This document shows positions 55,199 through 64,000 of a stretch of 64,000 nt of DNA, one piece after another. The DNA is taken from positions 124,001 through 188,000 of the forward strand of contig JAIXOU010000122.1 in NCBI GenBank assembly GCA_027486585.1. The letters run 5' to 3'. The notes beneath the pieces are model-generated. The model had not been told where the DNA came from and searched no databases. It saw nothing but the letters and a program-made list of their open reading frames with translations. This stretch comes from Verrucomicrobiaceae bacterium (GTDB taxonomy: Bacteria; Verrucomicrobiota; Verrucomicrobiia; Verrucomicrobiales; Verrucomicrobiaceae). Made by a program: the position numbers and the translations under genes. Within the stretch, counting starts at the first letter, position 1, and each line of letters opens with the position of its first letter.

Positions 55199-56425
55199 AT
55201 GATTTTCTCACTTACATCCCGCATCATGCGCACTGTTGACCCGCTTTGCTTAGCGAAGGTTGGCTGGAACTTTGGCTACAAGGGCGCGCGCTCTGTGTTG
55301 CTGTTTAAAAAGCGCATGGAAAAAGGGGAGTTCTTCCCGCCTTTCCTTTACATCTCCATTCTCAACTCCTGCAACCTGCGCTGCCAGGGCTGCTGGGTGG
55401 ACGTGGATAAGCCGCGTGAAGCCATCAAGCTTGATGAACTCAATAAGATCGTCAATGACGCTAAACGTCACGGTAATGCCTTCTTCGGGATCTTGGGCGG
55501 CGAGCCCTTCATGCATCCTGAATTGTTCGACTTTTTGGCAATGCATCCCGATTGCTATTTCCAAATTTTCACCAATGGCCAACTCATCACGGAAAAAGCA
55601 GCTCAAACCCTGCGCAAACTCGGCAATGCGACGCCGCTGGTGAGTGTGGAGGGTAATAGCACCGTCAGTGATGAACGACGTGGCAATAAAGATGTACTGA
55701 ATCGCACCCTTCGCGGTCTGCAAAATTGCTTGAATGCCAAGCTGCTTACCGGTGTGGCCACGAGTCTTTGTCAGACGAATATTGATGACCTCTTGAACCG
55801 TGAGTGGCTGCAAAAGCTCATCGATATGGGCGTCCATTATACTTGGTATCACACTTACCGTCCGGTCGGGCCGAAGATCAACGATCAGCTGGCTTTGACG
55901 CCGGATCAGATCACGCAGGTGCGCCGCTTTGTCACCGACATGCGCGCGGAGATGCCGATTGCGATTGTGGATGCTTACTATGATCACAATGGCAAAGCAC
56001 TCTGTCCGATGGCGACTGGCATCAGTCATCATATTGGCCCTACGGGTGGGCTTGAGCCATGTCCGATCATCCAATTTGCCACGGAGAACATCCGCACAGA
56101 TCGGGATATTTATGATGTCTTTACCCAGTCCGCATTCTTGAAAGATTTCCGCGAGACCGCAGCGCAGCATACCCGTGGGTGCATCGTTTTAGAGCGTCCT
56201 GATCTGGTGAAGGAGCTAGCGCTCCGACATGGCGCTAAAGATACCACTATCCGCCAGACGGCCATGGCAGAGACTGAGGCGATGCAGCCGAGGACCAGCC
56301 AGTGGCGTGCCGAGGAAGAGATCCCTGAGAAACACTGGATGTATAAGGTGGCCAAGCGCTACTTCTACCATGACTTCGGCGTTTATAAGCAGCTCGATCC
56401 CAAGGCCAAATCGCCTATCCAGTAA
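55199..56425 (+). CDS. Radical SAM protein of unknown specificity
   Basis: The 408 residues hold the [4Fe-4S] cluster motif CxxxCxxC at Cys58, Cys62 and Cys65 (SCNLRCQGC). The GGEP motif follows (GILGGEPFMHPELFD), as does a SAM-domain barrel with FQIFTNGQLI and VSVEGNS. Further Cys residues in the C-terminal part (LCPMATG, EPCPIIQ) could bind a second cluster as in SPASM-type enzymes; this is inference. The next genes are a small Cys-containing protein and a two-cluster ferredoxin, all close, which suggests a shared redox pathway. Confidence 0.85.
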   Translation: MIFSLTSRIMRTVDPLCLAKVGWNFGYKGARSVLLFKKRMEKGEFFPPFLYISILNSCNLRCQGCWVDVDKPREAIKLDELNKIVNDAKRHGNAFFGILGGEPFMHPELFDFLAMHPDCYFQIFTNGQLITEKAAQTLRKLGNATPLVSVEGNSTVSDERRGNKDVLNRTLRGLQNCLNAKLLTGVATSLCQTNIDDLLNREWLQKLIDMGVHYTWYHTYRPVGPKINDQLALTPDQITQVRRFVTDMRAEMPIAIVDAYYDHNGKALCPMATGISHHIGPTGGLEPCPIIQFATENIRTDRDIYDVFTQSAFLKDFRETAAQHTRGCIVLERPDLVKELALRHGAKDTTIRQTAMAETEAMQPRTSQWRAEEEIPEKHWMYKVAKRYFYHDFGVYKQLDPKAKSPIQ

Positions 56426-56448
56426 CCTCCCGTTTTTTGTTGATACCC

Positions 56449-56811
56449 ATGCCCGATAGTCCGCCCACGCTTCTCTACTGCCGCTGCGCTTATGCTCAGG
56501 TCGTTCCTAGTGGAGTTAAAAATGAAGTGCTCCAGCGTCTCTGTGATGCTGGGGTGAATTTTGAAACGGTGTCCGACCTCTGCGAGATGGCAGCCCACCG
56601 CGATCCACGCCTGGCTGCTCTTTCTCAGTGTTCGTCTCTACGCATCGCTGCTTGCTATCCGCGTGCGGTGAAGGGGCTATTTCATCAGGCGGGCTCGCCA
56701 CTCTCAGCGGATGCCGCTATTTTAAACATGCGCAATCAATCCGCGGAAGAAATCGTCGGACAGATGCTGGGCACCGTGCCCGTTTCGTCCGTGGAAGAAT
56801 CTCAGTCATGA
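56449..56811 (+). CDS. Small Cys-containing protein in radical SAM cassette
   Basis: The 120 residues begin MPDSPPTLLYCRCAYAQ; a TTG at 56437 is a possible earlier start. It has no signal peptide or membrane helix. Five cysteines are spread along it, at CRC, RLC, DLC, QCSS and AACY-type sites. The family is not recognised. It starts 23 bases after the radical SAM stop and overlaps the ferredoxin start by four bases (ATGA), so it is translated with both. Confidence 0.65.
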   Translation: MPDSPPTLLYCRCAYAQVVPSGVKNEVLQRLCDAGVNFETVSDLCEMAAHRDPRLAALSQCSSLRIAACYPRAVKGLFHQAGSPLSADAAILNMRNQSAEEIVGQMLGTVPVSSVEESQS

Positions 56812-57665
56812 TCACTCACATTCATCGTCCTCTCCGCGTGGTGCTTTACGAAGGCCAAGGCGCTATCCCGCTCAATGCTGAAGCCCGTGCCAAAGTCATG
56901 GCTGCCCTTTTGGATAAAGGTTATGCCGTCACGCGCGCTGCCACGGGGGCCCCTGCGATGCCGCATGATGATCGGAATCTGTTGTTGCTAGGATCTTTCC
57001 CAGAACAAAAAGCACCTGAGATCGAAGATGAGGCAGGGCAGATCAAGATCGATACACGTGACATCACTGGCCTAGCCGCAGAGGAAATTGTCTCTCTGGT
57101 GGAGAAGACGCGCGGTGACAAGCCCATGAACGAGCCTGGGAAATGGAAGCCTTGGTTCCCTGTCATCGACTATTCCCGCTGCACGAACTGCATGCAGTGC
57201 CTGAGTTTCTGCCTCTTTGACGTCTATGGTGTCAGCGAAGACAACAAGATCCAGGTGCAGAACAATGACAACTGCAAGACCAACTGCCCTGCCTGCTCCC
57301 GCGTCTGCCCTGAGGTGGCCATCATGTTCCCCAAATATCAAGCCGGGCCGATCAATGGTGACGAGATCAATGAAGCGGAGGCAGGTCGCGAAAAGATCAA
57401 AGTGGACATCTCCTCCCTGCTCGGTGGTGACATCTACTCCGCATTGAAAGATCGTAGCGCAGCCGCGAAGAGCCGTTTTGGCAAGGAGCGTAGTCCCGAC
57501 AAAGCTCTGGATGAGCGTAAAAAATGTCTCACCAAACTGGTCGGCGATGGCTTTATTCCTGCCGATGTCTTGGCCTCGCTGCCGTCTCCTGATGAGATTT
57601 TGCGAAAAGCCGAAGTGGCCAAAGCTCGTGCTGCCACAGCCCTGGCGAATATCGCAGCTTCCTAA
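56808..57665 (+). CDS. Ferredoxin-domain protein (two [4Fe-4S] clusters)
   Basis: I placed the start at the ATG at 56808, inside the ATGA overlap with the small protein gene; the frame is open upstream but without family features. Of 285 residues, the first 105 form an unrecognised alpha/beta domain. A dicluster ferredoxin follows: Cys125, Cys128, Cys131, Cys135 and Cys156, Cys160, Cys163, Cys167 (the latter as CKTNCPACSRVC). The last 100 residues are charged and helical. It is likely an electron carrier or subunit for the radical SAM protein encoded two genes upstream. Confidence 0.85.
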   Translation: MITHIHRPLRVVLYEGQGAIPLNAEARAKVMAALLDKGYAVTRAATGAPAMPHDDRNLLLLGSFPEQKAPEIEDEAGQIKIDTRDITGLAAEEIVSLVEKTRGDKPMNEPGKWKPWFPVIDYSRCTNCMQCLSFCLFDVYGVSEDNKIQVQNNDNCKTNCPACSRVCPEVAIMFPKYQAGPINGDEINEAEAGREKIKVDISSLLGGDIYSALKDRSAAAKSRFGKERSPDKALDERKKCLTKLVGDGFIPADVLASLPSPDEILRKAEVAKARAATALANIAAS

Positions 57666-57695: not shown

Positions 57696-60600
57696 TCAAG
57701 GAGCACTCGTGCCCCAAACGATACGGTAGAACCGTGGAGGATTGGCGCTGAATGGAGTTGGATCGGTGAATGACATGGTTGTGTTGGTCGCCCTGGTTGA
57801 AGTGGTCACAGGAGTCCAGTTGATGAGGTTGCTGGAGCGTTCTAAGTGGTAGTAGAGACCGCGTTGGGTAGGGGTGCTCATCGTCACGCTGGTCGGTTGC
57901 ATGGACATAGAGGGCACGACTTTTTCGGCCAAGATGTTTCCAGTCCAATACTTGGCAGCCAAGTTATAGGCGCTGATGCCTGCTTGTGAGCCAGTGATGC
58001 GTCCATGGTAGTCATCTTCAGAGACGTGGATGCCACCAAAGCGGCGCGATTGGCCAGCTTGGTCAGCAGCATCGTAATAGGTGCGCCATTGCAGATCTAC
58101 AGCCGTGCTGGGGCCGAGGTCGATCTGCATCGAGTTAGCTGCAAAGGTGTAGTTGTGGAAACCACCTGGGAAGTCAGGACTGCCTGTAAGCTTGGTGAGT
58201 GCCTCTGCCGCTGCACGAGAGAAAGTGCTATGACCTGATGTGTAACCTGGGAAGGCAGGTGTGTTGAAGGTCTTGCGCTGGAAGGGCAGCCAGTCTTTGG
58301 CCAGCATCCATCTCACGGTGCTTTGATTCGTCGCGATGCTTGGAGCTGGGAGATTATTCACATGCTCACCTGGCCAGGATTTGACCGCGATCTCGTCAAC
58401 ATGCCAAGCGCCGGGTTCATAGCTGCTGGTATAGACGTTCCAGACGCTTTCATGTTTACCGCCGGTCTGGATCGTATTTGCGGTGATGATTTCGCAGACA
58501 TCTGTCTGAAGAGAAAGCCCCTGCGCATGGTAGGAAGGTACACCTTGGATCGTGCTTTGACCAAGGCTGGCCATGTAGCGGACCATCGTGATCGGGCGTG
58601 GTCCTGAATAGTAGCGCTTCAATGACCAAGAAGCACAAGCAGCATCATGAGTCGCTGCACTGATGGAAAAATAAGCTTTGATGTCCCACTCAAGATTGCT
58701 GACAACCGGGCCGACTCCACCGATTCTTTTGACTGTATCTGGGTCGTCAGCGACTTCATTGGCGATGACCTGCCAGTGACCAGGAGGGGTTTCGGAGTTT
58801 GGTCCATCTGCCCAATATTCAGCTAAAACGCGAGTGTAGTCGCCTAGAGTGACGAGATTCGGCGGGTAAGGTTGGCCTGTTGCTGGATTGATGGCATGTC
58901 CTGTGCCATTGTCTGTGCCGAGCGGGTTATTGCCGACGCCACTAGGTGAGATATTGATTAACGTTGAATCATTGAGTTGAGCGCTGGCTTGGAGGATGCC
59001 GAGAACACCAGCTTTATAGGCTGCATCTGTTGGGCTTGGTGCATTAGGAAGGCTGAGCTTGGATGGACCGCCAAAGGGATCTAACCATGGCTTGGTCGGG
59101 TCAGTGCGAGAGAGGCTGAAGGGAACGGTGGCAAGTGAGTGCACGCCCACAAAGCCTTGGATGCCGCCAGGAGTGGGGATGCCGTTTTGAGTCACGGAAA
59201 CAGATAGCGCGAGCGGTTGCCAAAAGTTTGGATTGGTGCCAGCAGGAATACCGACGCCGAGTGGCATGTTGGCGCGGGAAGGGAATTCGCCATTGTTACC
59301 AAGCACACCCAAGCTGAGTGCAGGGTCCATGTTGGGATTGACAGCAGCGGTATAGGCCTGCGGGTAAGTGGTGTTAGTGAAGCCATCTCCAGCCCCCCAG
59401 CTCAACACAGCGTCGGCGATTCGTTTGCCGAGTTCTGCGGGTGTGTTCAAAGAGGTGGTGAGAGATTGCGCTACAGAAATGGAGTAACCTTGAGCCGTGA
59501 GTTGAGTATCAAAAGATGCCAGTGAGGTAGCTGACCCCGAGCCTGTGGCAAAGCGGCTTCTTAGAATACGGTAAGCTGCGTAGCTGATGGCTTCAGCGCG
59601 CGCGGCTTCGATGTTGCTCGGCAGGGGACTGATCTTTTCATTGTATAGGTAGCCGACGGCGGTGCTGTCATAGGCTGCCCAAGCGTTGTACATAGCAGTG
59701 GAGGTATGGAAAATGTTGCGTGCATGGGCTGGTGGGTTCGGGACGTTTCGGCGGATAGCGCCGAGAAGTTGCTCATTCCAAAGCCGTGCCGCAGATGGGA
59801 TGAATTCGATGATGCGATAAGTGCTGCCAACCGGTGGATTAACCTCTGTGTAGCTTCCGGTAGTGCCGAAAGCGAATTGGCTTTTGCCGACATTGACCCA
59901 GGTCGTGAAATTGGAGCTGCGCTGGATGCGATAAATACGACCAAGCGTTTGAGGCCAGGAAATCACCGCATTGCCATTGGATTGAATCGCAACCGAGGGC
60001 TGGATGGACTCCGTTTGAATATTGCCAGTCCAGAATCTCTCGGCTTTCGTGTAGGCTGAGATACCTGCTTGCGAGCCGATGATGCGGCCATGGTAATCAT
60101 CTTCATAGGGATGGATACCGCCATAACGACGTGACTGGCCTGCTTGGTCCGCCGCGTCATAATAAGTAGTCCATTGCAGTTCGACATTGGTGCTTGGTCC
60201 AAGGTCAATTTGCATTGAGTTAGCAGGGAAGATGCGATTGTGAAATCCGCCTGGGAAGTTGGCACTGCCAGTGATGCGAGTGAGGGCTTCAGCTGCCGCG
60301 CGAGAGAACGTGGAATGGCCTGAGACATAACCTGGGAAAGCGGGCGTGTTGAACGTCTTCCGTTGGAAGGGCAACCAATCTTTTCCGAGCATCCAGCGCA
60401 CCGTGCTCTGATTCGTGGCGATGGATGGGGCTGGGGCGTTTGAAGGATTTTCTCCAGGCCAGGAATACACAGCGATTTGGCCAGTGAAATTGCCTCCATC
60501 TTGGTAACTGTTGGTGGCGACATCCCAAATCTGGTAATGCTTTCCAGGTGCGGATGCTGTGCCAACGCTTGCGTCTGTAATGAGTTCGACGACGCCTGTT

Positions 60601-61958
60601 TCCAAAGGAATACCCTCTGGGTGATAGGATTCTCCATTCGGATCAGAAGACTGGCCTTTGCTGCACATGTGGCGGATGGCTGTGATCGGACGAACCCCGG
60701 AGTAGTAGCGTTTCAGAGCCCAAGCTGCACAGGCTGCGTCATGAGTGGCCGCAGAGACGGCTAGATAGTTTTTGATGTCCCATTCTAGATTATTGACGAT
60801 GGGTCCCACGCCACCGATTCTTTTCACCGTATCGACATCGTCTGCGACCTCGTTCGTGATCAAATGCCAATGTCCTGGAGGTGTCTCAGAATGCGGACCA
60901 TCGGCCCAGTATTCTGCTAACACACGCGTGAAGTCTCCTCTGGTTACTTGATTGACTGGGTACGGTTGACCTGTGACAGGATTGGTGGCGCGCCCTGTAC
61001 CATTGTCGGTCCCGAGCGGGTTGTTTCCGATAGCTCCAGGTGAGATATTAATGAGGGTGTTGTCATTCAGTACCGCCCCTTTGCGCAGCACATCCATGAA
61101 ATTGTCTTTGTAGGCAGCGTCTGTGCTGCTGGGGGCATTGGGTCTGCTGAGGCGTGATGGACCACCGTAGGGATCTAGCCATGGCTTGGTGGGGTCACTG
61201 CGGTTAAGGCTAAAGGGCACCGTGGCGAGTGATTGAACCCCGACAAAACCTTGGATGCCGCCAGGAATGGGAATGCCGTTTTGGGTGACGCTATTGCTCA
61301 GCGAGAGGGGCTGCCAGAAATTAGGGTCAGTGCCGGCAGGAATACCAAAGCCCAGTGGCATATTGGATTGGAACCAAATGTTGGTCCCGAGAGCTGAAAG
61401 CGGGTAATCCATGTTCGGATTCACTGCCGAGGTGTAGGCTTGAGGGTAATCCATTTGATTGAAGCCATCCTGGGCACCCCAATTGAGTATCATCTGACCG
61501 ACACGCTTACCGAGTTCTGCCGGCGTGGTGCCATTGGTGACGGCTGATTGTGCGACAGAGACGGAATAGCCGAGTTGAGTTAATTTGGCATCAAAGCTGG
61601 CTAAAGAGGCTGCCGCCCCTGAACCACTGGCAAAGCGGCTGCGTAAGACACGGTAGGCCGCGTAGCTGACGGCCTCGTGCCTTGCTGCCTCAATGTCTGG
61701 GGGCAGGGAAGAGATTTTTTCATTGTAAAGGTAACCGACTGCCGTGCTGTCATAGGCAGCCCATGAATTGTACATGGCCACGGCGGTGTGGTGGAGATTG
61801 CGGGCATGGGCTGGCGGATTGGGTACATTCCGTCGGATAGCTCCGAGCATTTCCTCATTCCAGATACGGGCTGCAGATTGCTGCGCCTGGGCTAACTCTG
61901 CGCTGAATCCTAAAAGGAGAAGCGGCACCGCTAAGCGTCGAACGAAGGTCTTAATCAT
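57696..61958 (-). CDS. Tandem two-domain vanadium-haloperoxidase-like (PAP2-fold) exported protein
   Basis: The 1420 residues begin with a signal peptide (cleavage near LAQAQQ). Two copies of a unit of about 694 residues follow, starting at Ser28 and Ser722 (SAARxWNE ... GAIRRNVPNPPAHARN). Each has all three active-site blocks of the vanadium haloperoxidase / acid phosphatase fold: Lys416/Arg423 (KRYYSGVRP), His548 (SGHSTFSRA) and Arg610/His616 (SRRYGGIH) in unit 1, and Lys1114/Arg1121, His1243 and Arg1305/His1311 in unit 2. Each unit ends with a short beta-rich module containing RSSN...W. No sorting signal is seen at the C-terminus. The halide or phosphate activity is unproven. Two exported-protein genes lie just upstream. 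Confidence 0.85.
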   Translation of the reverse strand: MIKTFVRRLAVPLLLLGFSAELAQAQQSAARIWNEEMLGAIRRNVPNPPAHARNLHHTAVAMYNSWAAYDSTAVGYLYNEKISSLPPDIEAARHEAVSYAAYRVLRSRFASGSGAAASLASFDAKLTQLGYSVSVAQSAVTNGTTPAELGKRVGQMILNWGAQDGFNQMDYPQAYTSAVNPNMDYPLSALGTNIWFQSNMPLGFGIPAGTDPNFWQPLSLSNSVTQNGIPIPGGIQGFVGVQSLATVPFSLNRSDPTKPWLDPYGGPSRLSRPNAPSSTDAAYKDNFMDVLRKGAVLNDNTLINISPGAIGNNPLGTDNGTGRATNPVTGQPYPVNQVTRGDFTRVLAEYWADGPHSETPPGHWHLITNEVADDVDTVKRIGGVGPIVNNLEWDIKNYLAVSAATHDAACAAWALKRYYSGVRPITAIRHMCSKGQSSDPNGESYHPEGIPLETGVVELITDASVGTASAPGKHYQIWDVATNSYQDGGNFTGQIAVYSWPGENPSNAPAPSIATNQSTVRWMLGKDWLPFQRKTFNTPAFPGYVSGHSTFSRAAAEALTRITGSANFPGGFHNRIFPANSMQIDLGPSTNVELQWTTYYDAADQAGQSRRYGGIHPYEDDYHGRIIGSQAGISAYTKAERFWTGNIQTESIQPSVAIQSNGNAVISWPQTLGRIYRIQRSSNFTTWVNVGKSQFAFGTTGSYTEVNPPVGSTYRIIEFIPSAARLWNEQLLGAIRRNVPNPPAHARNIFHTSTAMYNAWAAYDSTAVGYLYNEKISPLPSNIEAARAEAISYAAYRILRSRFATGSGSATSLASFDTQLTAQGYSISVAQSLTTSLNTPAELGKRIADAVLSWGAGDGFTNTTYPQAYTAAVNPNMDPALSLGVLGNNGEFPSRANMPLGVGIPAGTNPNFWQPLALSVSVTQNGIPTPGGIQGFVGVHSLATVPFSLSRTDPTKPWLDPFGGPSKLSLPNAPSPTDAAYKAGVLGILQASAQLNDSTLINISPSGVGNNPLGTDNGTGHAINPATGQPYPPNLVTLGDYTRVLAEYWADGPNSETPPGHWQVIANEVADDPDTVKRIGGVGPVVSNLEWDIKAYFSISAATHDAACASWSLKRYYSGPRPITMVRYMASLGQSTIQGVPSYHAQGLSLQTDVCEIITANTIQTGGKHESVWNVYTSSYEPGAWHVDEIAVKSWPGEHVNNLPAPSIATNQSTVRWMLAKDWLPFQRKTFNTPAFPGYTSGHSTFSRAAAEALTKLTGSPDFPGGFHNYTFAANSMQIDLGPSTAVDLQWRTYYDAADQAGQSRRFGGIHVSEDDYHGRITGSQAGISAYNLAAKYWTGNILAEKVVPSMSMQPTSVTMSTPTQRGLYYHLERSSNLINWTPVTTSTRATNTTMSFTDPTPFSANPPRFYRIVWGTSAP

Positions 61959-61976: not shown

Positions 61977-62639
61977 TTAGGCGCGACGACGACGGGCAAA
62001 GACGCAAACAGAGGTGAACAACAGCAGCAATCCGCTTGGCTCTGGCACAGGGCTGAGCTGGAGTTGTGAGCCGGTATTGACTCCGCGTATCACGGTATCG
62101 ACTTCAAAGGTCGAAAGGGTGCTGGAACCAAGATCGTTCGGCATTTCCCAGCCCGTGGAAGCTGAGAAAATACCCCACTCTGAAGCTGATTGTGGTGTCG
62201 CACTATTGAAGACCCAGACCGATAGATCAGAAGTTGGAGCGATGTAGTTTGGGTTTGAGGGGCTTAGACTTCCCACATTGATGCCGACGATTTGATCAAA
62301 GACCGCACCTGGGGCAAACATGTCGTTCACCACCAAATAGTTGGTTAAGGAACCGACGGTATTGATCCAGCCAGCATTGGAGATGTTTTCTCCCAAGGGA
62401 CGGAAAAGGGAATTGATTGCCGAGTAATCATTGCTGGTCTGTAGCATCAGCAGGCTTCCCGGACTGGAAATGTCGAAGTATCCCACACGAATGACGCTGC
62501 CCGAGTTGAGCAGGCTGCCATTGCTGGTGGTGTAGGGTGAACCTCCATTAGTGTTGACCGTAATCGAAACAGAGGCAGCCACTGGCAAACTCGTGAGTAG
62601 TGCCAGACTGAGGATTGGAAAGATAAGGAATGATTTCAT
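61977..62639 (-). CDS. PEP-CTERM sorted exported protein
   Basis: The 220 residues have a signal peptide (MKSFLIFPILSLALLTSLPVAAS) and end with the sorting signal VPEPSGLLLLF, a membrane helix and an Arg-rich tail (RRRR). The middle is beta-rich and includes VIRVGYFDIS and VWVFNSATPQSASEWGIF, which recur in the protein encoded just upstream. It would be exported and processed by exosortase, possibly for attachment outside the cell. It lies 18 bases before the haloperoxidase-like gene, on the same strand. Confidence 0.85.
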   Translation of the reverse strand: MKSFLIFPILSLALLTSLPVAASVSITVNTNGGSPYTTSNGSLLNSGSVIRVGYFDISSPGSLLMLQTSNDYSAINSLFRPLGENISNAGWINTVGSLTNYLVVNDMFAPGAVFDQIVGINVGSLSPSNPNYIAPTSDLSVWVFNSATPQSASEWGIFSASTGWEMPNDLGSSTLSTFEVDTVIRGVNTGSQLQLSPVPEPSGLLLLFTSVCVFARRRRA

Positions 62640-62663: not shown

Positions 62664-63599
62664 TTAGGGGGCTGCGGCAAAGCGAACTCTCCAGAAGCAG
62701 CGGGCTCCTGGGGCGGCGACGCACTCGCGGGTGTCAAAGTCGGCGTCACTGGAAACAACTTGTGAGGTGGCGGGTGCCCAGGTCTTCAGATCGGGAGAGC
62801 ACTCCACGGTGACATTGACATCCGGTGTATTGCGTGGGCTTTTAAAGCTGAAAACGATGTTCCCAGACCGTGTGTTGATGTCGGTGCGTGTCTTGTCTGC
62901 TGAGCCAGCATTGAGCTTCCAGGCATACTCAGCGATGTTAGCGATTCCGTCTGCATCTGGGTCAGCGGCTGCGTCAGTGCTTTGTCCACTCGGAGCGCTA
63001 GCATAGCTCTGCCAGGTCCAGTTGCCGTAGGTTGTGGGAATGTCGTTCAGGCAGAGTTGGGCATTGGCCGCCGTGCCCTGAATGGCCTGCATGGAGGCCG
63101 AGGTCGAGAGCGGCTGGGAGCCGAGCGCCTGGGGGGCTAACCAGCTAGGGGCGGTAAAGATTCCCCACTCGGTGGCTTTGGCGGGATCTGCATGATTAAA
63201 GACCCAAATGTAGAGCTTCGTCCCAGCTGCCATGTAGCTGGTTTTGATGTCGCTGACCGTGCCAAATATGTTGCCTGCGGTAGGGAAACTGTTGGTGGTT
63301 AGGCCTGAGCCTGTGCTGTTGGGCTGCTCAGCTGTTCCTGCATTTGGCGTGTTTTCGGCCAAGGGCTTGAACCAGGAGGCCAAAGTGGTGTAGTCACGAG
63401 TAGCGGCCAGGGTGGCGTCACGCGTGGCATCGGGGAGATTGAAGCTGCCAATTCTCACTGCACAGCCGTTTGGCAGAGCCGCGCCAGTTTTGGAGGCTAG
63501 CTGGCTACCGCCTGAGGTGGTCAGGGTGACGCCACCTGCGTGGGCTTGGCAGATGCTCAAGGCCAGCAAGGAAAGGAAATAGAGGGGGCGTAGTTTCAT
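62664..63599 (-). CDS. Exported paralogue of the PEP-CTERM protein, without sorting signal
   Basis: I used the ATG at 63599, which begins a signal peptide (MKLRPLYFLSLLALSICQAHA); the ATG at 63623 overlaps the upstream stop by four bases and is also possible. The first 180 residues share the pattern of the next gene (VRIGSFNL, IWVFNHADPAKATEWGIF). Residues about 195-240 hold a calcium-binding thrombospondin-type repeat (DPDADGIANIAEYAW), and a beta-rich module of the kind found in the haloperoxidase-like protein ends the chain. There is no PEP-CTERM tail. Confidence 0.8.
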   Translation of the reverse strand: MKLRPLYFLSLLALSICQAHAGGVTLTTSGGSQLASKTGAALPNGCAVRIGSFNLPDATRDATLAATRDYTTLASWFKPLAENTPNAGTAEQPNSTGSGLTTNSFPTAGNIFGTVSDIKTSYMAAGTKLYIWVFNHADPAKATEWGIFTAPSWLAPQALGSQPLSTSASMQAIQGTAANAQLCLNDIPTTYGNWTWQSYASAPSGQSTDAAADPDADGIANIAEYAWKLNAGSADKTRTDINTRSGNIVFSFKSPRNTPDVNVTVECSPDLKTWAPATSQVVSSDADFDTRECVAAPGARCFWRVRFAAAP

Positions 63600-63619
63600 C
63601 GAGCCAAATAAGAAAGGGT

Positions 63620-64000
63620 TCATGGGGCGACGGTGACGGGGGCCAAGTTGATGTTTTTGCTGGCATCCACATTGATCACAATGCTCGTCCCAGCAGGGAG
63701 TGACGTGTTATTGGCATTTTGACCGCTGCCATTGATCAGGCCGCTGCCAGTGCTCAGGAAAGTGCCCGTTTGGGCTAAGGTGCCAGGATTCAGGGTGACG
63801 ATGGAGTCATTAAAAGGTTGCAGGCTGCTGGTGATCCCGAGCGCACCGAGTGTGGTCGTGGTGCCGAGGGGATTCAGTGCGCCCACAAGGTTTGGCACGC
63901 CACCGCTGGCTCTGATTTTGGTAGGAGTGCTTTTCACATAACAGACCTCACCTTTGCCTAGTGTGATGGTCAGGATGGCATTGGACTGGATCACAAAGCC
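63620..64000 (-). CDS. Exported or surface protein of unknown function, 5' end outside window
   Basis: The frame is open to the window edge, so the start lies beyond 64000. What is visible (about 127 residues) is rich in Gly, Thr, Asn and Ser with few charges (TTTTLGALGITSS, GSGLINGSGQNANNTS). This composition suggests a secreted or cell-surface protein. No family can be named from this part. Its stop overlaps a possible start of the next gene by four bases (63620-63623). Confidence 0.6.
   Translation of the reverse strand, partial: GFVIQSNAILTITLGKGEVCYVKSTPTKIRASGGVPNLVGALNPLGTTTTLGALGITSSLQPFNDSIVTLNPGTLAQTGTFLSTGSGLINGSGQNANNTSLPAGTSIVINVDASKNINLAPVTVAP

What the first reader, a model, noticed from the sequence alone, without database searches (positions are those of the whole stretch)
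57696..61958. One polypeptide with two complete vanadium-haloperoxidase-like domains
Two units of about 694 residues sit head to tail, each with the Lys/Arg, SGH and SRxxxGxH active-site blocks at almost equal spacing (offsets 698, 698, 695 and 695 residues). The family is normally one domain per chain. The DNA of the halves has diverged, so both have been kept for some time. It may form an intramolecular dimer, or the two sites may have different substrates.
Basis: partly seen in the sequence, partly recalled or inferred. Interest (0 to 1): 0.72.

Follow-up and report, generated by a model that had tools for sequence, protein, structure and literature searches.

The report
Secreted double-unit vanadium haloperoxidase
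A Verrucomicrobiaceae-type bacterium makes one probably secreted protein that carries two complete haloperoxidase-type enzyme units in a row; relatives share this layout, always with the same kind of front unit but with different kinds of back unit, so it looks like a real and long-kept two-site enzyme built from exchangeable parts.

Summary
Confirmed. ORF 57696-61958 (-) encodes a 1420-residue protein with a signal-peptide-like start and two head-to-tail vanadium-haloperoxidase (VHPO) units, each followed by a small beta-rich tail. The halves are 69% identical, both keep the seven expected pocket residues, and synonymous sites between them are near saturation. It is not an assembly artefact: six other metagenome-assembled genomes hold the same two-unit frame, and both units are under purifying selection. 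It is not a simple duplication across the group: the seven front units form one clade, the seven back units do not (p-AU 9e-9), and tail modules follow position (front or back), not core type. Two relatives keep the signal peptide and front-type tail but lack the front core. The gene lies behind two conserved genes for exported-looking proteins, one with a PEP-CTERM signal; X1, one of these, occurs in 11 of 68 family genomes, all 11 also carrying this VHPO family. Best reading: an extracytoplasmic two-site hypohalite-forming enzyme with a fixed front unit and an exchangeable back unit. Activity, substrates, oligomer state and the 'intramolecular dimer' remain untested; structure models failed. 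The (limited) paper searches listed no two-unit VHPO. New variant of a known kind.

The parts
57696..61958 (-). two-unit VHPO gene, 1420 aa
   Evidence: closed frame; two DUF6851 stretches and VCPO_2nd
61884..61958 (-). signal peptide, aa 1-25 (cleavage after AQA, judged by eye)
   Evidence: sequence itself; no signal-peptide program was run
60015..61874 (-). front (N) VHPO core, aa 29-648
   Evidence: 69% identical to the back unit; Pfam; clade of 7 front units, support 99/99
59793..60014 (-). front tail module, aa 649-722, beta-strand-rich, Fn3-like by eye
   Evidence: pLDDT 66-89 per 10-residue block and five strands, in an otherwise poor model; clade of front tails plus three leader modules, support 100/98
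57933..59792 (-). back (C) VHPO core, aa 723-1342
57699..57932 (-). back tail module, aa 1343-1420
   Evidence: first block pLDDT 50, then 76-87, strands; clade of back tails and tails of same-locus single-unit proteins, support 94/81
60690..60713 (-). front unit Lys416 ... Arg423 (KRYYSGVRP)
   Evidence: equivalent positions invariant in 43 of 43 tree units
60315..60323 (-). front unit Ser546-Gly547-His548
60111..60131 (-). front unit Arg610 ... His616
58596..58619 (-). back unit Lys1114 ... Arg1121 (KRYYSGPRP)
58230..58238 (-). back unit Ser1241-Gly1242-His1243
58026..58046 (-). back unit Arg1305 ... His1311
61977..62639 (-). X2: 220-aa protein with PEP-CTERM sorting signal; 18 bases between its stop and the VHPO start
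   Evidence: TIGR02595 18.8 bits over cut-off 16; next to the VHPO in 10 of 15 loci examined
62664..63623 (-). X1: 319-aa protein, distant paralogue of X2 (34%)
   Evidence: at E <= 1e-20 in 11 of 68 family genomes, all of which carry this VHPO family
63620..64000 (-). end of a further protein, weakly TIGR02597-like; its start lies outside the window
   Evidence: L074 6624-7643: TIGR02597 at 26.5 bits, below the cut-off of 50

Best explanation
The gene encodes an exported vanadium-dependent haloperoxidase with two catalytic units in one chain, each ending in a small beta-rich tail. Each unit should bind vanadate through its His/Arg/Arg/Lys/Ser/Gly set and use hydrogen peroxide to oxidise halide (bromide, perhaps chloride) to hypohalite outside the cytoplasm, near surface proteins from the same gene cluster. 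The front unit is fixed in every two-unit protein found; the back unit is a cassette that has been exchanged by recombination at the core/tail borders, and the front core seems to have been lost in some relatives. SHOWN from sequence: two units with intact residue sets, conservation, selection, locus, mosaic history. INFERRED: secretion (signal peptide by eye), vanadate chemistry (residue roles recalled), halide choice, the direction of the gains and losses, and that the two sites work together rather than merely add dose.
For: Intact residue sets in both units of 7 of 7 two-unit frames; Lys, Arg, Ser, Gly, His, Arg, His invariant in 43 of 43 tree units. A profile of 28 units of the family finds 5 PDB sequences at E <= 0.001, all named VHPO, NapH1 or NapH3, best E 8.5e-31. 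The residue three before the Lys is Trp in 43 of 43; the chlorinating Curvularia and Ascophyllum enzymes carry Trp there (PMC11871015, passages). dN/dS is far below 1 in both units wherever dS is finite. The 7 front units form one clade, 99/99; one clade for the 7 back units is rejected, p-AU 9e-9. Tails sort by position, 100/98, and reject following the core types, p-AU 0.004 and 0.003. X1 occurs in 11 of 68 genomes, all with the VHPO.
Against: No biochemical evidence; PAP2-type acid phosphatases share the residue pattern (recalled). Both structure predictions failed (mean pLDDT 38 and 40), so pocket geometry is unverified. The Trp argument is weak: in the same paper, putting Trp or Phe at that place in AmVHPO hardly changed or lowered chlorination (10% and 2% against 8% for wild type). 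In the window lineage a direct N/C sister relation is not firmly rejected (p-AU 0.09). The clades tested were named after seeing the trees. The named two-unit genomes are all MAGs. Frames without an [ST]GH[SAT] string were filtered out before the tree; none of the 37 loci was lost by this, but the tree holds only strong matches (E <= 1e-60), not the more distant VHPO-like genes.
Confidence: 0.62

Rival explanations
1. It is a two-unit acid phosphatase (PAP2 / class A type) rather than a haloperoxidase; the shared pocket binds phosphate.
For: The two families share the residue pattern (recalled); a sub-threshold PAP2 hit at 19.1 vs 27.2 bits; Asp at His+4 is invariant in 43 of 43 units, which fits phosphatases but, as recalled, also Curvularia VCPO.
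Against: DUF6851 and VCPO_2nd are the only Pfam hits over cut-off; PDB profile hits are all VHPOs; cores of about 620 residues, with an invariant Trp next to the Lys.
Confidence: 0.12
2. Simple internal duplication: the window's back unit is just a copy of its front unit, kept for dosage, and the back-unit diversity in relatives arose by separate events.
For: Halves 69% identical; p-AU for N+C of the window lineage as one clade is 0.09, not rejected.
Against: Best tree places the window back units apart from the 7-member front clade (99/99); back tails of all types group together and away from front tails.
Confidence: 0.2
3. Only one unit is catalytic; the other keeps its pocket residues but serves as scaffold or dimer partner.
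For: The segment between Arg and SGH is the least conserved part of the core (44-48% identity in the three 25-codon blocks at aa 429-506), so access to the pocket could differ.
Against: Pocket residues intact in both units of 7 of 7 proteins; purifying selection on both.
Confidence: 0.15
4. Assembly or chimera artefact.
For: The window genome is a draft in 147 contigs, and the named relatives are metagenome assemblies.
Against: Same two-unit frame in six other assemblies (in G024 the front end is cut by a contig end); saturated synonymous divergence between halves; no long shared DNA run between the window's halves (18 bp, p 0.43).
Confidence: 0.01

Closest known systems
NapH1 and NapH3 (PDB 3w35, 8cxl; Streptomyces origin recalled) and the VHPOs of PDB 9l8x and 9ptr
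   Same: Best PDB matches, over the same N-terminal region and the K...RP and R...H blocks
   Different: Chains of 478-548 aa, i.e. one unit. In the printed alignments 9l8x, 9ptr and 8cxl read SGS, SAS and SGF where both window units read SGH; for 3w35 the aligned stretch does not reach that site.
Vanadium haloperoxidase of PDB 4cit (Zobellia, recalled)
   Same: FPxYxSGHS block and SRx(Y/F)GGIH block as in both window units
   Different: 458 aa, one unit; weak overall similarity (E 1.7e-7)
Curvularia vanadium chloroperoxidase
   Same: Trp three before the catalytic Lys (paper passages) and Phe five before the Ser (recalled); VCPO_2nd Pfam domain
   Different: One catalytic unit per chain (recalled); no fused second unit or beta-rich tail (recalled)
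Acaryochloris AmVHPO (PMC11871015, passages seen)
   Different: Hexamer of dimers of one-unit chains; Arg, not Trp, three before the Lys
Kelp VHPO tandem gene clusters (PMC11765636, passages seen)
   Same: Tandem duplication of VHPO genes
   Different: Described there as clusters of tandemly duplicated genes; no fused two-unit protein in the passages seen

Membership tests
vanadium-dependent haloperoxidase | Lys, Arg, Ser-Gly-His, Arg, His pocket residues | tested here: met
   both units of 7 of 7 two-unit frames; invariant in 43 of 43 tree units (frames lacking [ST]GH[SAT] had been filtered out, none of 37 loci lost)
vanadium-dependent haloperoxidase | sequence similarity to structurally solved VHPOs | tested here: met
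   5 PDB sequences at E <= 0.001, named VHPO, NapH1 or NapH3, best E 8.5e-31
vanadium-dependent haloperoxidase | VCPO helical-bundle Pfam domain (PF22778) | tested here: inconclusive
   front unit 43.2 bits over cut-off 27; back unit 26.4, just under
vanadium-dependent haloperoxidase | double helical-bundle fold | tested here: inconclusive
   AlphaFold2 models at mean pLDDT 38 and 40, unusable
vanadium-dependent haloperoxidase | vanadate binding and halide oxidation with H2O2 | not testable with these tools
   needs protein
classical VHPO architecture | one catalytic unit per polypeptide | tested here: not met
   two units in one closed frame
PAP2 acid phosphatase | Pfam PAP2 (PF01569) above cut-off | tested here: not met
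   19.1 vs 27.2 bits
PEP-CTERM protein (X2) | C-terminal PEP-CTERM signal, and an exosortase in the genome | tested here: met
   TIGR02595 18.8 over 16, though Pfam PF07589 is under its cut-off, 19.5 vs 20.7; 2 exosortase matches over cut-off in the genome

The most novel reading that the evidence does not exclude
An asymmetric, obligate two-site haloperoxidase in which the fixed front unit and the exchangeable back unit pair within one chain and shape each other's substrate channels, so that swapping the back cassette changes what the enzyme halogenates while the fixed front unit keeps it at a shared surface-protein locus.
Probability: 0.15. Interest if true: 0.75.

Novelty: new variant of a known kind. 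Interest (0 to 1): 0.5.

Why it matters
VHPO halide choice, and whether these enzymes hold their substrate or just release hypohalite, are open questions (discussed in the passages of PMC11871015). A natural protein with two unequal, separately inherited sites in one chain gives a built-in comparison of front and back units. It also suggests that VHPO units recombine as cassettes at the borders of small beta-rich modules, and it points to a small cluster of exported-protein genes in Verrucomicrobiaceae where extracellular halogenation may take place.

Tried and rejected
Structure: two AlphaFold2 jobs (front unit, back unit; 14-row alignments) gave mean pLDDT 38 and 40. Only the tails, and at lower confidence short stretches around unit residues 431-470 and, in the back unit, 91-110, were modelled with some confidence, so no fold search was run. 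The full chain (1420 aa) exceeds the 1200-aa limit, so the intramolecular dimer could not be modelled.

Considered and rejected: assembly artefact; degenerate second unit; recent gene conversion between the window's halves (longest identical run 18 bp, p 0.43); spread on plasmids (9 of 72,556 records match, none covering 80% of the protein). Promoter and terminator scans at the locus gave nothing above shuffles.

Literature searches that could have shown a two-unit VHPO: 15 of 30 papers listed; 6 of 6; 1 of 1; 1 of 1; 6 of 6; none; 12 of 4,854 listed, largely off topic. No listed title or abstract start names one. Passages of PMC11765636 and PMC11871015 were seen by term search; no paper was read whole. 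The library lacks most subscription journals and, by its own statement, bioRxiv preprints, so this is weak evidence of absence.

Limits: whole-genome searches cover the window's own phylum only. Outside it I had one genome-contig scan that finds close relatives only (6 loci), plasmids and the 14 control genomes (no hit). The p values are not corrected for seven genes; the conversion test shuffles codon columns.
Full report
OBSERVATION. The minus-strand ORF 57696-61958 is a single closed frame of 1420 aa. It starts with a signal-peptide-like stretch (judged by eye) and then holds two units, aa 29-722 and 723-1420, that align at 69% identity. Third-position identity is 43%, and 67 of 203 four-fold sites at shared residues agree; core-to-core dS is 2.9. 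Each half on its own matches DUF6851 above cut-off; VCPO_2nd is above cut-off in the front half and just below in the back half. The protein has one place in its genome; two other weak matches cover only its last part, mainly the tail.

NOT AN ARTEFACT. In the family-wide search 15 of 68 genomes hold a match at E <= 1e-60. Seven of these hold the two-unit frame: G000 (window), G038, G024, G055, G096, G057 and G056; G024's front unit lacks its first 51 residues at a contig end. The other eight (G005, G010, G029, G039, G040, G043, G044, G100) hold one-unit proteins of this family only, G029 two of them. In a sample of 387 genomes of the phylum, 13 carry DUF6851 (E <= 1e-5) and only two of them, G000 and G056, carry it twice in one frame. 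Both units are under purifying selection: dN/dS 0.026 (front) and 0.061 (back) between G000 and G038.

HISTORY. In a 43-row tree of cores from 36 loci, the seven front units form one clade (99/99) that contains no single-unit protein. The back units fall into different places. Those of G055, G096 and G057 group with the single-unit proteins of G044, G029b and G043 (92/88). The G056 back unit groups with the single-unit proteins of G100, G029a and G040 (96/92). The window-type back units (G000, G038, G024) stand as their own clade (100/100). Holding the seven back units together is rejected (p-AU 9e-9), but holding window-type and G056 back units together is not (0.35), and neither is holding the window lineage's own front and back units together (0.09). 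The G056 back core does not belong to the G055/G057/G044 type (p-AU 4e-83).

The small tails tell a second story. The seven front tails form one clade (100/98) together with 5' leader modules of G029b, G043 and G055 (the G055 leader is a long branch, so less sure); the seven back tails form another with the tails of the same-locus single-unit proteins G100, G044, G029b and G043 (94/81). With only 77 columns, tails still reject following the core types: the G056 back tail with the window-type back tails, p-AU 0.004; the G057 back tail with those of G055 and G096, 0.003; and the G029b/G043 leaders are separate from those proteins' own tails, 1.5e-5 (groups chosen after seeing the trees). So the order signal peptide - front core - front tail - back core - back tail behaves as a frame whose back core has been exchanged. 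In G029b and G043 the frame reads signal peptide - front tail - back core - back tail, as expected if the front core was deleted; insertion of a front core into such a frame elsewhere is not excluded. G055 carries one extra front-type tail before its front core. Short tracts of front/back gene conversion are suggested in G057 (31 bp identical run, p 0.006, in a 10-residue insertion found in both its units and in none of the other 41 tree units), G024 (35 bp, p 0.003) and G096 (24 bp, p 0.016), but not in G000, G038, G055 or G056 (p 0.22-0.62).

LOCUS. Upstream on the same strand lie X2 (220 aa, PEP-CTERM), X1 (319 aa) and a weakly TIGR02597-like protein. X1 at E <= 1e-20 occurs in 11 of 68 family genomes, and all 11 also hold a VHPO of this family. 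X1 and X2 are adjacent to the VHPO in ten of these; in G024 they lie on another contig. The same locus has a single-unit VHPO in G044, G100, G029b and G043, and a two-unit one in G000, G038, G055, G056, G057 and G096. VHPO-positive genomes G010, G040, G039 and G005 lack X1; G029 also has a second one-unit gene away from X1/X2, and the loci of G068 and G074 show no X1/X2 either. The X1+X2 tree does not match the back-core tree (G057 with G100, 97/98; G100 is a long branch), which again hints at recombination at the locus. The genome holds two exosortase genes, so X2 may be sorted to the cell surface. The VHPO itself shows no PEP-CTERM match.

FUNCTION. The seven pocket residues (roles recalled) are invariant in 43 of 43 units, as are a Trp three before the Lys and a Phe five before the Ser. 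PMC11871015 (passages) reports Trp at the first position in the Curvularia and Ascophyllum enzymes, described there as chlorinating, and Arg in red-algal and Acaryochloris bromoperoxidases; but Trp or Phe put into AmVHPO hardly changed or lowered chlorination, so the residue alone does not decide halide choice. I recall Phe at the second position in the Curvularia enzyme. This suggests, but does not show, halide oxidation that may include chloride. The same paper shows that in AmVHPO the substrate channel is formed with an adjacent subunit, a precedent for two units cooperating; whether the fused units do so is unknown. The front and back cores differ most between Arg and SGH. Across the seven proteins only six positions are fixed differently in front and back units, two of them in the tails, so no shared front-versus-back specificity signature is evident; this speaks against one universal division of labour.

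VERDICT. Real, conserved, not an artefact. A domain architecture not met among the other members sampled here, with an unexpected modular history. Function and cooperation of the two sites are inference.

Noticed in passing
L058/L027 (G057), both units, around 'FNGSNQ': Front and back units share a 10-residue insertion absent from the other 41 tree units, with a 31 bp identical DNA run: likely intragenic conversion.
   Followed up: yes
L055 (G029b) and L056 (G043): Signal peptide plus front-type tail joined directly to a back-type unit: looks like deletion of the front core.
   Followed up: yes
L060 (G055), leader before the front core: An extra front-type tail module precedes the front core; possible trace of a further unit.
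   Followed up: partly
L052 (G010), L062-L065 (G426, G358, G417, G376): Long frames (1375-1530 aa) carrying one VHPO unit of this family plus several hundred other residues, apparently Ig-like by eye; no domain search was run on them.
   Followed up: no
L067/L068 (G074, G092): A single-unit VHPO gene followed closely by a second, distant VHPO-like gene on the same strand (about 30% identity; one match in G074 reads through a TGA): side by side but unfused.
   Followed up: no
window 62664-63623 and 61977-62639: X1 and X2 are distant paralogues of each other (34%) lying in tandem; X1 matches no Pfam or NCBIfam family at the thresholds used.
   Followed up: partly
window 55199-57665: Radical SAM protein, small ORF and 4Fe-4S ferredoxin-like protein in a row on the plus strand, converging on the VHPO gene.
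   Followed up: no
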